From Agrobacterium cavarae (GTDB taxonomy: Bacteria > Pseudomonadota > Alphaproteobacteria > Rhizobiales > Rhizobiaceae): 64,000 nt of DNA. The stretch is taken from positions 263,890-327,889 of the forward strand of contig NZ_SISF01000034.1 of assembly GCF_004310285.1 (NCBI RefSeq). The letters run 5' to 3'. The position numbers and the translations under genes are program-made. The notes beneath the pieces were generated by a model. It was not told the DNA's origin. It saw only the letters and a list, made by a program, of their open reading frames with translations, and did no database searches. Position 1 is the first letter of the stretch. The number at the start of each line of letters is the position of its first letter. This document shows, in pieces, positions 60,331 through 64,000 of the stretch.

Positions 60331-61725
60331 CTATCGGTCGCGGGTGACCGACATCTCACCGAAGATGCGAGCCATTTCCTTTTGAACGTCTCGTTCAGCA
60401 TCCGCAGGGGCTTCCGAAAACTTTGGATCGGGTTGCGGGTCAGGTGTCGTTGTGTCGAGGTTCACCGGCGGCGCCACGGCAAGCGGGCGCGGCAGATCGG
60501 TGGTGGCATTAGCACTTTTGGCAATCTCGGCTTCAAGGAAGCTTTCGAAATCACTGGTCAACTGGTCGCCGAAGACGGGACCATTGTCACCTGGAGCAAG
60601 CGGTTCCGGTTTTGCGACAAGCGGCGCCACAGGCGTTGCGGATGCGGTGGTAACGGACGGTGTAGCGCTGTAGGCGGGAAGCACGCGGTCGCGGGCAGCG
60701 TCGAGAAAATCGACTGCATTTCGCTCCGCTATCGCTGCCTCACTTTGCCCAACCGGCTCTGACTTTTCTTCCAATGTAGGCCCTGCCGTGAGCTTAGGCT
60801 CTGCGAATCTTCGGTCATAGGTCGTGGATACGACCGGTGCGACAACCGGAGAAACGCTAGGGGCCTGTGAAGGAAGAGGCGATTGTGGAGCGACAGGCGC
60901 TTCGGAGACCACCGGAGCTTGAGAAGCCGGTGCAGCAGACCGGTTCATGTCCTCATCCTGCTGCATGATGGCGGCGGCAACCAACGGCGGTACGACTGGA
61001 ATGGAAGGAGCGACGGGCTCGCGGGCCAACGTTCTGGGTGCTGGTGGTACGACCGCTTCAGACGCCTCACGGCTTGGAGCCGACGCCGAGGGTGCGACAG
61101 TCGAAACGGGAGGTGTCGCAGGCGCAGGCTGTGGCTTTCGGACTGCGGGCTGCGGGGGAGCTGGTGGGGCCGCAGGAACGGGTCTGGACGCAACGGCGGG
61201 TGCTGGCGAAGGTGAGGCGGCTGGCTGAGGTTTCACCGGCGCGGTGCTCGCCACTGGCTTCCTAGGTTCCTGTGGCGCTTCGGCGTTCAGTTCGGGAGCG
61301 ACGAATGCGGCTGCAGGGCGAACATCCTCTTGTGGTACCTGGGCGAGCGTGCGCTGTCGGTCGGCGGATACGCTGCGGTCGGCATCACGTGCGATCAGGG
61401 CGTCTTCCTGCGGATCGCGCACATCCTTCATGAACGGGATGGCGCCAATACCGCTTTCGATCACGATGTCCGTTGGCCCGCCAATCATCACCAGATGCTC
61501 GACATTGTCACGGCGCACGAGAACGAGACGCCGCCTTGCGTCGACGGCTGTCGCGTCCAGAACCTGCAGGCGAGGCTGACGGTTTCGTCCGCCACGGATG
61601 AACGGGGCAGAGCCACTGCGTCTGCGAATGAACCACAGGACGATGGCAAGCAGCAGGAGTGCCGCACCCACGCCAACCACTGCAATGATCAGGCGATTGC
61701 CATATGTGCCAATGAAATCTTCCAT
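60331..61725 (-). CDS. Membrane protein with FliO-like N-terminal domain and long Pro/Ala-rich tail
   Basis: 464 residues from ATG 61725 (MEDFIGTYGNRLIIAVVGV). One membrane span at about residues 10-33, a basic stop-transfer patch (WFIRRRSG), then a FliO-like beta domain (RLQVLDATAVDARRRLVLVRRDNVEHLVMIGGPTDIVIE, cited in parts) ending near residue 110. The rest is low-complexity, rich in Pro, Ala, Val and Ser, with a more ordered end (FGDQLTSDFESFLEAEIAK). FliO helps assemble the flagellar export gate, but no flagellar genes are nearby, so this is a FliO-domain relative of unknown role. The frame is open further upstream without a good start. Confidence 0.8.
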   Translation of the reverse strand: MEDFIGTYGNRLIIAVVGVGAALLLLAIVLWFIRRRSGSAPFIRGGRNRQPRLQVLDATAVDARRRLVLVRRDNVEHLVMIGGPTDIVIESGIGAIPFMKDVRDPQEDALIARDADRSVSADRQRTLAQVPQEDVRPAAAFVAPELNAEAPQEPRKPVASTAPVKPQPAASPSPAPAVASRPVPAAPPAPPQPAVRKPQPAPATPPVSTVAPSASAPSREASEAVVPPAPRTLAREPVAPSIPVVPPLVAAAIMQQDEDMNRSAAPASQAPVVSEAPVAPQSPLPSQAPSVSPVVAPVVSTTYDRRFAEPKLTAGPTLEEKSEPVGQSEAAIAERNAVDFLDAARDRVLPAYSATPSVTTASATPVAPLVAKPEPLAPGDNGPVFGDQLTSDFESFLEAEIAKSANATTDLPRPLAVAPPVNLDTTTPDPQPDPKFSEAPADAERDVQKEMARIFGEMSVTRDR

Positions 61726-62044
61726 AACGGAGCCGGTCCCTTCAGCCATTTCGTGCAGCGGAAATGTACCCGCATTACATTTGTTCACACAACGTGACGG
61801 GAAAAGACGATTTTTTTTCGCCCCGCACAAGAATTTATCCTGTTCGTCCACGAATTTGCTGCAAGTTTGACGAAAGGGCCCGACTATAGAGCTTGTCTCA
61901 AAGCGCACAGGTGGCCGAAATCGTTATTGGTTGTGCATGGGTGGTGCTTATAGATGGACGGAGCTTTTTGATATTTATGCAAATTGCTACAAGGAAATAG
62001 AAGCGATTCCGTTCGACGCGGCTGTTGTTCGGCATGTCGCACAG
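61726..62044. other. Upstream region of the FliO-like gene, no gene recognised
   Basis: About 320 bases preceding the divergent FliO-like gene, before the inverted repeats of the cckA leader. An A/T-rich patch lies near 61808-61818 and 61965-61985. No coding frame on either strand looks convincing. Confidence 0.5.
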
Positions 62045-62121
62045 CTAGTGGTCTGATTTTGACATTTGCTACCGCTGGCAGAGGACTCGAGAGCAAATGT
62101 CAAAATCTTCAAGACCACTAG
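62045..62121. repeat. Long palindromic element 1 upstream of cckA
   Basis: Left arm 62045-62070 (CTAGTGGTCT + GATTTTGACATTTGCT) pairs perfectly with AGCAAATGTCAAAATC + AGACCACTAG on the right (62092-62121), giving 10+16 paired bases interrupted only by a 4-base bulge (TTCA, 62108-62111). The loop of 21 bases contains CTCGAG. Read on the opposite strand it aligns over its whole length with element 2, including bulge position and loop. Each arm carries a TTGACA hexamer. Confidence 0.85.
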
Positions 62122-62134
62122 TAAGTTTTTGTTT

Positions 62135-62213
62135 CTAGTGGAATTTACGAATTTGACATTTGATTCTCGAGATCTCCGCATGTGGGCATCAAATGTCAAA
62201 TTCATTCCACTAG
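62135..62213. repeat. Long palindromic element 2 upstream of cckA, inverted relative to element 1
   Basis: Left arm CTAGTGGAAT + bulge TTAC + GAATTTGACATTTGAT (62135-62164) pairs perfectly with ATCAAATGTCAAATTC + ATTCCACTAG (62188-62213): again 10+16 paired bases with a 4-base bulge, and a 23-base loop containing CTCGAG. Where its arm differs from element 1 (AAT for TCT, AAT for TTT, GAT for GCT), the opposite arm carries the matching change. It ends 24 bases before the cckA start. Confidence 0.85.
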
Positions 62214-62237: not shown

Positions 62238-64000
62238 ATGACCAAGGTGCGTCAATCCACTGATAACGACTTCCCCTTGGTGGACAGGCGTGGGCGCTCC
62301 GCCACCGTGCTTCGTATTCTATTGCTGGCGCTTGTGCTCGTCGCCGCTGCCATTGCTTTCGTTTACTTCAAGGACTCGCTCGAAAACGAGATTGTGCTTG
62401 GGATCCTCGGCGTTCTTGCCATGCTCGGGATTTTCTTCCTCGTCTCGTCCGTGATCGGTTTCATCGAGGTGATGCCGCAGTCTCAATCCGACGGGATGGC
62501 GCGGCGGTTTCTCTCGTCCCATCCTGAAGGCACGTTGATCACCGACACCAAGGGGCGGCTGGTTTATGCCAACGCTACCTATTGCCAGATGACCGGCGCG
62601 ACCCGTGCGACGGACATACAAAGCCTCGAACAGCTACTGTCGCGAGACCGGGAATCGACCGAGGCACTCTATCGGCTGATCAACGGACTGCGCGAAGGAC
62701 GGGACGGTTACGAAGAGTTTCGTCTTCTCAAACCTCTCAGCCAGTCGGCCGTCAGTCAGCCCGGTCCACGCTGGTTCCGGCTCAAGGCGCGTTTGCTGAA
62801 GGAGGTGAACGGGCAGGACCTGCACGTTTTCCAGATCGCCGACATTACCGCCGAGCGCGAGGACCAGGAGCGTTTCTTCCGCGAATTGCAGAATGCCATC
62901 GATTATCTGGACCACGCCCCTGCCGGCTTCTTCGCCGCAGGACGCAAGGGCGATATCGTTTATCTCAACGCGACGCTGTCCGAATGGCTTGGCATCGATC
63001 TCGCGCAGTTTTCGCCGGGCTCTCTGAATGTTTCCGATATCGTCGCAGGCGAGGGGATGGCACTGATTGAATCGGTTCAGCCGCACGCGGGCAGCAACCG
63101 AACGGAAATGCTCGATCTCGACATGCGCCGCGTCAACGGCCAGAGCATGCCGGCTCGTCTCGTTCATCAGGTAACAGCGGCGCGTGACGGTGCGCCTGGT
63201 GAAACCCGGACACTCGTTCTGATGCGTCCCAAGGGGCAGGAGAACGCAGAATCCTCGTCTGCTATGCGGTTCACCCGCTTCTTCAACAATACGCCGATGG
63301 CGATCGCATCGCTGGATGGTGAGGGACGCATCCTGCGCACCAATGCGCCGTTCCTGAAGCTGTTTTCTGGTGTCGTCAGCCGCGATGATATCGACAGCGC
63401 CGTCGCGTTCGAAACCGTGCTGCATGACAATGAGAAAGCCAAGCTTGCGCAGGCGATGAGCGCTGCGAAAGATCGCCAGGGCGATATTCCGCCTTTCGAT
63501 TCCCGCCATCCGAAGGATGAGACGCGCCACTTCCGTTTCTACGTCAATGCCGTCATCGACCAGAACGACGAGGCACCTGAAGAGGTGGCGATCGTCTATG
63601 CGATCGAGGTGACCGAGCAGAAGGCGCTTGAAACCCAGATGGCGCAAACGCAGAAGATGAACGCTGTCGGTACGCTTGCAGGCGGCATCGCGCATGACTT
63701 CAACAATGTACTCACCGCCATTCTGCTGTCGTCAGACCATTTGTTGCTGCAGGCGCGGCCGGCTGACGCAAGCTTTGCAGACCTGATGGAAATCAAGCGC
63801 AATGCGAACCGTGCCGCTGTTCTTGTGCGACAGTTGCTGGCGTTCTCGCGCAAGCAGACGATGCGTCCTGCTGTTCTCAATCTGACCGACGTGATCGGCG
63901 ATCTGCGCATGTTGGTCGACCGGCTGATTTCCGGCACCAACGTCAAGTTGGAAGTGGACTATGGCCGCGATCTCTGGCCGGTGAAAACCGACCTGTCCCA
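62238..64000 (+). CDS. cckA: Hybrid sensor histidine kinase CckA (5' part; runs off the window)
   Basis: 587 codons are visible from ATG 62238, open to the end of the window. Two membrane spans at about residues 24-44 and 51-74, then PAS-like domains (SSHPEGTLITDTKGRLVYANATY; HAPAGFFAAGRKGDIVYLNATL; NTPMAIASLDGEGRILRTNAPF, in parts), then the HisKA box MNAVGTLAGGIAHDFNNVL with the phospho-accepting His486. In alphaproteobacteria CckA passes phosphate through ChpT to CtrA and controls the cell cycle. The ATPase and receiver domains lie beyond the window. The two palindromic elements occupy its leader. Confidence 0.95.
   Translation, partial: MTKVRQSTDNDFPLVDRRGRSATVLRILLLALVLVAAAIAFVYFKDSLENEIVLGILGVLAMLGIFFLVSSVIGFIEVMPQSQSDGMARRFLSSHPEGTLITDTKGRLVYANATYCQMTGATRATDIQSLEQLLSRDRESTEALYRLINGLREGRDGYEEFRLLKPLSQSAVSQPGPRWFRLKARLLKEVNGQDLHVFQIADITAEREDQERFFRELQNAIDYLDHAPAGFFAAGRKGDIVYLNATLSEWLGIDLAQFSPGSLNVSDIVAGEGMALIESVQPHAGSNRTEMLDLDMRRVNGQSMPARLVHQVTAARDGAPGETRTLVLMRPKGQENAESSSAMRFTRFFNNTPMAIASLDGEGRILRTNAPFLKLFSGVVSRDDIDSAVAFETVLHDNEKAKLAQAMSAAKDRQGDIPPFDSRHPKDETRHFRFYVNAVIDQNDEAPEEVAIVYAIEVTEQKALETQMAQTQKMNAVGTLAGGIAHDFNNVLTAILLSSDHLLLQARPADASFADLMEIKRNANRAAVLVRQLLAFSRKQTMRPAVLNLTDVIGDLRMLVDRLISGTNVKLEVDYGRDLWPVKTDLS

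What the first reader, a model, noticed from the sequence alone, without database searches (positions are those of the whole stretch)
62045..62213. Twin palindromic elements in inverted orientation with compensating changes, just before cckA
Each element has a 10+16 bp stem with one 4-base bulge and a 21-23 base loop containing CTCGAG. Element 1 read backwards aligns with element 2 throughout, yet the arms differ at several positions and each difference is matched in the opposite arm. Copies that diverge but keep perfect self-pairing suggest that the fold itself (RNA hairpin or DNA cruciform) is maintained, or that each copy was rebuilt by palindrome-correcting events. The shared CTAGTGG / CCACTAG ends also let the two elements pair with each other, so alternative folds of the cckA leader are possible. 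TTGACA hexamers in both arms could also supply promoters. The pair lies in the leader of a master cell-cycle kinase. I do not know whether this repeat family is catalogued.
Basis: partly seen in the sequence, partly recalled or inferred. Interest (0 to 1): 0.62.

Follow-up and report, generated by a model that had tools for sequence, protein, structure and literature searches.

The report
Twin-hairpin jumping element before cckA
The two mirrored hairpins before the cell-cycle kinase gene are one 169-base, gene-less jumping element of a family scattered through alphaproteobacteria, with ends like those of the insertion sequence IS870, whose own ends carry a fixed cell-cycle DNA-methylation site.

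Summary
62045-62213 holds two perfectly paired hairpins (10+16 bp, one 4-base bulge each), inverted, 13 nt apart. They are one CTAG-bounded, 169-bp, non-coding mobile element (MITE). Twins with the same layout occur in many alphaproteobacteria; the end pattern is in 72 of 394 genomes of the family (some of these are IS ends). The cckA site is occupied in one sister species and empty in 24 of 26 leaders placed. The ends resemble those of IS870/ISAr1-type insertion sequences (IS630 family), which also sit in CTAG.

The compensating differences are real but old. Over 52 twins each half-hairpin covaries; cross-half pairing hardly does. Single copies decay: at cckA, 0 of 6 changed stem pairs are compensated and the element diverges like its flank. 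The fold belongs to the mobile lineage; it is no evidence for a cckA riboregulator.

A lead beyond the finding: in alphaproteobacterial IS of this kind, GANTC (the CcrM methylation site) sits at 11-15 of one end in 31 of 31 and at 24-28 of the other in 28 of 34; in five relatives from other classes, in none. Replication-coupled transposition is plausible, untested.

The parts
62045..62213 (.). whole 169-bp twin MITE, bounded by CTAG on both sides
   Evidence: same layout in 52 distinct twins
62045..62121 (+). half A hairpin (outer arm 62045-62070, loop 62071-62091, inner arm 62092-62121 with bulge 62108-62111); A-type outer ends resemble the stop-codon end (E1) of IS870-type IS
62122..62134 (.). 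13-nt linker between the halves (TAAGTTTTTGTTT)
62135..62213 (-). half B hairpin, inverted (inner arm 62135-62164 with bulge 62145-62148, loop 62165-62187, outer arm 62188-62213); B-type outer ends resemble the other end (E2) of an IS870-type IS of Bradyrhizobium elkanii
62045..62048 (.). left CTAG (target; TA 62046-62047 the presumed duplicated dinucleotide)
62210..62213 (.). right CTAG (target copy; TA 62211-62212)
62084..62088 (.). GACTC, a GANTC (CcrM) site in loop A
62162..62166 (.). GATTC, a GANTC (CcrM) site at the stem/loop border of half B
61960..62018 (+). conserved cckA leader block, with GATTC at 62005-62009; upstream of the element, moved away from the start codon by the insertion
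62238..63998 (+). cckA (continues beyond the window)

Best explanation
The pair is a single 169-bp miniature inverted-repeat transposable element: two CTAG-bounded hairpin units in inverted orientation joined by a 13-nt linker. It inserted at a CTAG in the cckA leader, in the common ancestor of this species and one sister species, between a conserved leader block and the ribosome-binding site. It has no gene. It was most likely moved in trans by a transposase of the IS870/ISAr1 branch of the IS630 (Tc1/mariner-like) family, whose ends and CTAG target it shares. Each half-hairpin is kept paired in the lineage of copies that still transpose; a copy once fixed drifts. SHOWN: the family, its dispersal, the CTAG boundaries, occupied and empty cckA leaders, tandem copies sharing one CTAG, end similarity to IS870-type IS, family-level covariation, decay in the sister copy. 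INFERRED: mobilisation by that transposase; that the hairpin is needed for transposition; no important role at cckA.
For: Of 28 contig stretches of named genomes that match a relaxed pattern, 24 hold a twin of the same layout. Nine of 72,556 plasmid records match (Ochrobactrum, Agrobacterium, Rhizobium, Martelella, Aminobacter, Sphingobium, Pararhizobium), 5 over at least 80% of the query. End pattern in 72 of 394 genomes of the family, 36 of 109 genera; the reversed control pattern matched once, in G201; at least two of the 72 (G281, G082) are matches to IS ends. In R. paknamense (G063) the 32 end matches make 12 twins of 165-170 bp, 3 singles of 75 bp and 2 unpaired ends, nothing longer. cckA leader: occupied in G000 and G010, unoccupied in the other 24 of 26 leaders placed (G001 aligned). 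For copy L112 the unoccupied site of G186 reads CTAG at the right flank. In G084 copies stand in tandem sharing one CTAG. IS870-type IS of 1.14-1.19 kb are CTAG-bounded. Of 9 E1 ends, 8 score above all of 200,000 random sequences on the MITE A-end matrix, the ninth above all but about 20; of the 5 found by transposase alone, 4. The B. elkanii IS E2 end matches a MITE B end at 26 of 29 bases and scores 27.1 against a random maximum of 2.8. Two carriers of twins, G347 and G098, also hold a (broken) IS of this branch. Covariation. Local decay.
Against: No transposase close to the query was found in 27 of 28 chosen carrier genomes (E<=1e-20), so no active partner is seen beside most elements; G000 has one partial IS630-type hit. 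No transposition was observed. The unoccupied cckA site of G001 reads CCAG. At the L112 site only the right flank aligns, and other relatives read TTAG (G255, G428), CTAT (G084) or TCAG (G397). Tandem copies could also come from recombination. The E2 ends of the other IS resemble MITE B ends only weakly: 0 of 9 above the random maximum. The comparison set of real CTAG sites was no clean null: it held scores up to 20.9 (A) and 29.9 (B), probably altered element ends. L117 and L118 were found by the end pattern itself. Covariation confined to half-hairpins is not what recognition of double-stranded end repeats alone would give, so part of the mechanism is missing.
Confidence: 0.85

Rival explanations
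1. A structured RNA leader that regulates cckA (riboregulator or RNase III substrate) and is kept by selection at this site.
For: Stable predicted folds with an alternative pairing; the element lies between the conserved leader block and the ribosome-binding site; this copy is perfectly paired.
Against: Not in the other 24 of 26 cckA leaders placed in the genus. Sister copy: 0 of 6 changed pairs compensated, 4 broken. Divergence equals the flank. No Rfam match in the window. G-T and A-C off-pairs about equal over 52 twins (44 against 40), though copies lie in either orientation, so that count is weak.
Confidence: 0.07
2. A member of the catalogued CIR family (CcrM-associated intergenic repeats) of Caulobacter and Brucella. 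This does not exclude the IS630-MITE reading.
For: By the description in PMC2229807 (passages read) CIR have two arms joined by a linker, TA at the termini and GANTC at a loop, in alphaproteobacteria. This copy has GANTC in loop A and at the loop border of B; 12 of 52 twins have one in or touching a loop, 44 of 52 have one somewhere.
Against: CIR are given as about 110 bp, these are 163-172 bp. The GANTC position varies here.
Confidence: 0.15
3. REP/BIME-type repeat moved by a RAYT (TnpA-REP) single-strand transposase.
For: Hairpins in inverted pairs, half-hairpin covariation, a terminal tetranucleotide.
Against: Y1_Tnp (PF01797) found in 1 of 8 carrier genomes, and there over 28 of 121 profile positions. 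The tetranucleotide is CTAG, not GTAG or CGTC. Ends match IS630-type IS.
Confidence: 0.03
4. The paired differences come from palindrome-correcting template switching, not from selection for pairing in the mobile lineage. This is compatible with the element being a MITE.
For: Some covarying pairs show no intermediates (pair 16-58: 27 TA, 25 CG, 0 others) and some are transversions (pair 15-59: 24 CG, 9 GC).
Against: Close copies (<6% apart) show 2 compensated against 29 broken among 38 changed pairs (34 element pairs, not independent), so correction is not frequent in resident copies.
Confidence: 0.25

Closest known systems
IS870 / ISAr1 (IS630 family insertion sequences)
   Same: CTAG target, CTAGTGG start, A-type ends like IS end E1; B-type ends like the E2 end of the B. 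elkanii IS; GANTC at the same offsets in part of the MITEs (A at 11-15 in 19 of 52, B at 24-28 in 9 of 52)
   Different: The IS is about 1.15 kb with a transposase; the MITE has no gene and two internal hairpins. The cckA copy carries GANTC at neither end offset
RUP of Streptococcus pneumoniae (MITE linked to IS630-Spn1)
   Same: Small gene-less repeat, TA target, ends resembling an IS630-family IS (PMC2229807, passages)
   Different: 107 bp, other host; not described as two arms with a linker
CIR (CcrM-associated intergenic repeats)
   Same: Alphaproteobacteria, two arms with a linker, TA termini, GANTC (PMC2229807, passages)
   Different: About 110 bp; GANTC at a loop there, at varying places here; sequences not compared
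Bru-RS1/Bru-RS2 of Brucella
   Same: Palindromic dispersed repeats in a related family; IS711 inserted at a YTAR site in a Bru-RS1 (PMC3163539, passages)
   Different: 103 and 106 bp (PMC10800456, passages); sequence not in hand, not compared
REP/BIME with RAYT
   Same: Inverted pairs of hairpins
   Different: No full-length Y1_Tnp match in 8 carriers; other terminal motif

Membership tests
MITE of the IS630 family (IS870 branch) | short, gene-less, repeated in many places | tested here: met
   169 bp
MITE of the IS630 family (IS870 branch) | terminal inverted repeats like those of an autonomous IS | tested here: met
   A end: (8 of 9 E1 ends above the random maximum). B end: one IS only (B. 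elkanii E2, 26/29); the other E2 ends are weak (0 of 9)
MITE of the IS630 family (IS870 branch) | TA/CTAG target, unoccupied sites known | tested here: met
   G186 site CTAG (right flank only) and tandem copies sharing CTAG; cckA site of G001 reads CCAG. TA and CTAG duplication cannot be told apart
MITE of the IS630 family (IS870 branch) | mobilised by the IS transposase | not testable with these tools
   needs an experiment; close transposase in 1 of 28 chosen carriers, broken copies in G347 and G098
CIR | two stem-loop arms joined by a linker, TA at termini | tested here: met
   description from PMC2229807 (passages)
CIR | about 110 bp | tested here: not met
   163-172 bp in 52 twins
CIR | GANTC conserved at a terminal loop | tested here: inconclusive
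   met in this copy; in or touching a loop in 12 of 52, any GANTC in 44 of 52
CIR | sequence homology to CIR1-4 | not testable with these tools
   paper not held
REP/BIME | RAYT transposase in the genome | tested here: not met
   1 of 8 genomes, 28 of 121 positions
Bru-RS | sequence homology | not tested
   no sequence in hand; sizes of 103 and 106 bp differ
Rfam RNA family | score above gathering cut-off | tested here: not met
   0 matches in the window

The most novel reading that the evidence does not exclude
In Alphaproteobacteria, transposition of the IS870-type branch of the IS630 family, and of its MITEs, is gated by the cell-cycle methylase CcrM. A GANTC site is built into both IS ends at fixed offsets (11-15 and 24-28), so that newly replicated, hemimethylated ends are the active form, as Dam sites do for IS10 and IS50 in enterics (recalled). 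The MITE at cckA descends from this system; it moved the conserved leader GANTC away from the start codon of the very kinase that drives the cycle.
Probability: 0.45. Interest if true: 0.72.

Novelty: new member of a known kind. Interest (0 to 1): 0.47.

Why it matters
It explains a striking structure in the leader of a master cell-cycle gene as a transposon footprint, and gives a test that separates fold selection at a site from fold selection in a mobile lineage: compare close copies with distant ones. It ties a widespread alphaproteobacterial MITE family to a named IS branch. It also exposes fixed GANTC sites in IS ends, which makes directly testable whether alphaproteobacterial transposons use CcrM as enteric ones use Dam.

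Tried and rejected
Rfam scan of the window: nothing. Promoter and terminator scan: nothing. Phage records: no match in 50,697. RAYT: rejected. Of the 19 DDE_3 (IS630-type) loci found in 8 carriers, none has a CTAGTGG end, so the parent was sought, and found, elsewhere. One long inverted-repeat hairpin (A paired with B) was tested as the constrained structure: 75.4% of cells paired, 31 cells changed on both sides against 22 in shuffles (1 of 500 as high; covariation score 20 of 500); much weaker than within halves. G-T against A-C off-pairs as an RNA test: 44 against 40, uninformative because copies lie in either orientation. GANTC in the MITEs themselves: 44 of 52 twins have one against about 25 in shuffles, but other words such as TGNCA (50) and AANTT (51) are as enriched because the arms are conserved; I do not count it as evidence alone. 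Coding confounder for the IS-end GANTC: at E1 it mostly lies in the last codons (Glu/Asp-Ser), with N at a third codon position. It is still there in the six IS with an open frame where it overlaps the stop codon (L146, L248, L158, L159) or lies beyond it (L250, L254), of 28 alphaproteobacterial IS examined; the E2 site lies before the earliest possible start codon in 22 of the 28. Papers: ten searches on Bru-RS, RIME, IS870, IS630 MITEs, an arm sequence, CIR and CcrM with IS. Nothing in the listings described this family or GANTC in IS870-type ends, but only open-licence papers are held, most were seen as listings, and passages of eight were looked for (the Agrobacterium CcrM paper has no match for the transposon words tried). 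The Ralstonia methylome paper (PMC5390034) proposes, for another organism and IS, that DNA modification regulates transposition.

Full report
OBSERVATION. Two hairpins of 26 bp each (10+16 with a 4-base bulge), with 21- and 23-nt loops containing CTCGAG, stand in inverted orientation with 13 nt between them. All four hairpin ends read CTAG. The pair ends 24 nt before the start codon of cckA (NF046020). The arm motif is found nowhere else in the window and in none of 100 shuffles.

THE WHOLE IS ONE ELEMENT. Searching 61 genomes, the window's own included, with the pair gave 5 with a match: G000 itself, a 93% copy of the whole pair at the same place in G010, a diverged pair elsewhere in G001, and two weak partial ones. 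In named contigs a relaxed, polar pattern matched 28 stretches: Rhizobium paknamense, Agrobacterium vitis, Rhizobium spp., Xaviernesmea, an Aurantimonas MAG, an Asticcacaulis MAG and a Pararhizobium MAG; 24 of the 28 hold a twin by the criterion, and at least two of the rest are single units. Nine plasmid records match, no phage record. In 394 genomes of the family the end pattern, with up to 3 mismatches, is found in 72, a few of them IS ends. With a covariance model of the half unit, 6 of 39 genus genomes match at E<=0.001 and 11 of 385 genomes drawn across the class at E<=1e-5, G000 included (stricter filters). G000 holds this twin and two single 75-bp units; by eye both single sites have the same flanks as singles of G010, so these are old insertions. 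The window's family is that of G281, whose IS-bearing contig has the length and position of Ensifer adhaerens NZ_CP015882.1, that is Rhizobiaceae; the genus is not told.

MOBILITY. Of 30 cckA loci fetched (from 39 genomes) the start codon could be placed in 26; G000 and G010 carry the element, the other 24 do not. The occupied site reads CACAG[CTAG...CTAG]CAGAAC, G001 reads GGCCAGCAGAAC. For another copy, L112, only the right flank is comparable: G186 reads CTAG there, G255 and G428 TTAG, G084 CTAT, G397 TCAG. In G084 copies stand head to tail sharing a single CTAG (CCACTAGTGG junctions), as expected when a copy inserts into the end of another, though recombination could do it too.

THE PARENT. 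Among end-pattern hits, L117 and L118 turned out to be full insertion sequences: about 1.15 kb, CTAG at both ends, an IS630-type transposase (DDE_3) whose stop codon lies in the target CTAG. Plasmid copies 94% and 82% identical to L117 are annotated as IS870 and ISAr1 family. Recalled, not from a call: IS870 is described as needing CTAG to make its stop codon. On matrices built from the MITE ends, 8 of 9 E1 ends exceed every one of 200,000 random sequences on the A matrix; of the 5 found by transposase homology alone (L139, L142, L144, L145, L151), 4 do. E2 ends are weaker: 0 of 9 exceed the random maximum on the B matrix, and 1 of 9 narrowly on the A matrix. The B. elkanii IS, found later by protein search, has an E2 end matching a MITE B end at 26 of 29 bases. 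The GANTC offsets also map A to E1 and B to E2: in 52 twins A carries it at 11-15 in 19 and at 24-28 in 0, B at 24-28 in 9 and at 11-15 in 0; the cckA copy has neither. A transposase close to the query was found in 1 of 28 chosen carriers; two others, G347 and G098, hold broken copies. RAYT is not the partner.

COMPENSATING CHANGES. 52 distinct twins (at most 6 mismatches at each end, 155-180 bp; partial and more diverged copies dropped) were aligned. Pairing within halves: 95.6% of 2698 cells, 24 of 52 pairs with changes on both sides, 150 such cells against 40 in shuffles, 0 of 500 as high; sliding the partner drops pairing to 29-42%. The structure came from one of these sequences and the shuffles ignore relatedness, so these controls lean in favour. 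Pairing between halves, the long inverted repeat that end recognition by a DDE transposase would predict: 75.4%, 31 cells. So the constrained units are the half-hairpins, although the long fold has the lower predicted energy in this copy. But pairing is not kept in resident copies: element pairs less than 6% apart show 38 changed base pairs, 2 compensated and 29 broken; pairs 12-20% apart show 49% compensated and 35% broken (comparisons share elements and are not independent). At cckA, G000 against G010: 6 changed stem pairs, 0 compensated, 2 wobble, 4 broken, and 157 of 169 identical in the element against 283 of 304 in the upstream flank. This copy is one of 17 of 52 that are fully Watson-Crick paired. 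I read this as pairing kept in the transposing lineage, with drift after insertion; arm-to-arm copying in the source is not excluded.

FUNCTION AT cckA. The insertion lies between a conserved leader block, which carries GATTC in all 26 leaders placed, and the ribosome-binding site. That site lies 57-69 nt before the start codon in the 24 relatives and 233 and 235 nt before it in G000 and G010. No promoter-like match is added. A mild effect on cckA mRNA is possible, not shown.

A FURTHER LEAD. At least one end could be placed for 37 alphaproteobacterial IS: 19 of the 30 loci and 18 from plasmids. Dropped: 11 loci that are partial or without recognisable ends (three of these, L163-L165, show one CTAGTGG- or TTAGTGG-type end each, not counted), and distant CTAGTGG sites near L143 and L149. 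Ends were placed by the CTAGTGG start or by inverted repeats, not by GANTC. E1 carries GANTC at 11-15 in 31 of 31, with N = T16, A9, C5, G1; columns 11, 12, 14 and 15 are invariant in 28 distinct ends. E2 carries it at 24-28 in 28 of 34. Cupriavidus, Rhodococcus, Pseudomonas, Streptomyces and Marinobacter relatives: 0 of 5 and 0 of 5. The transposase tree of 26 shows two alphaproteobacterial groups, each beside different non-alphaproteobacterial rows (long branches, supports 82/68 and 89/96), so shared descent alone does not explain the split simply. Coding constraint explains part of E1 but not the six cases at or beyond the stop codon, nor E2 where it precedes the gene. Two dedicated paper searches listed nothing on this. 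CcrM gating of transposition is a hypothesis; Dam control of IS10/IS50 is recalled knowledge; methylation of these sites was not tested.

VERDICT. Real, ordinary in kind (a MITE), new as a family as far as the searches reach, with an instructive pattern of covariation and one promising lead on CcrM.

Noticed in passing
L137-L159, L174, L175, L236-L250, L254 (IS ends): GANTC (CcrM site) fixed in both ends of alphaproteobacterial IS870-type IS: 31 of 31 at E1 11-15 and 28 of 34 at E2 24-28; 0 of 5 outside alphaproteobacteria.
   Followed up: partly
window 62005-62009 and cckA leaders of the genus: A GATTC (GANTC) in a conserved block before cckA in 26 of 26 leaders placed (of 30 loci); 57-69 nt before the start in relatives, 233 nt here because of the element.
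   Followed up: partly
G084 C5, C9, C11 (L191-L194): Tandem runs of two or three twin elements sharing single CTAGs.
   Followed up: partly
L018 (G000 C16), L168, L173: Copies whose terminal CTAG seems to form the TAG stop codon of a neighbouring gene, so that insertion would leave the stop intact (L018 by eye).
   Followed up: no
L082, L098 (other IS630 copies with CTAGAGC ends): These also show GAATC at 24-28 of one end; ends placed by script only.
   Followed up: no
G063 and G000/G010 singles (L016-L020, L041): 75-bp single units without the 4-base bulge, often with one A-type and one B-type arm; whether they arise by deletion between the short direct repeats or are a separate form is open.
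   Followed up: no
window 60331-61908 minus strand: Divergent gene upstream of cckA resembles FliO (TIGR03500, 32 bits, below the cut-off of 55) and has a long proline/alanine-rich stretch.
   Followed up: no
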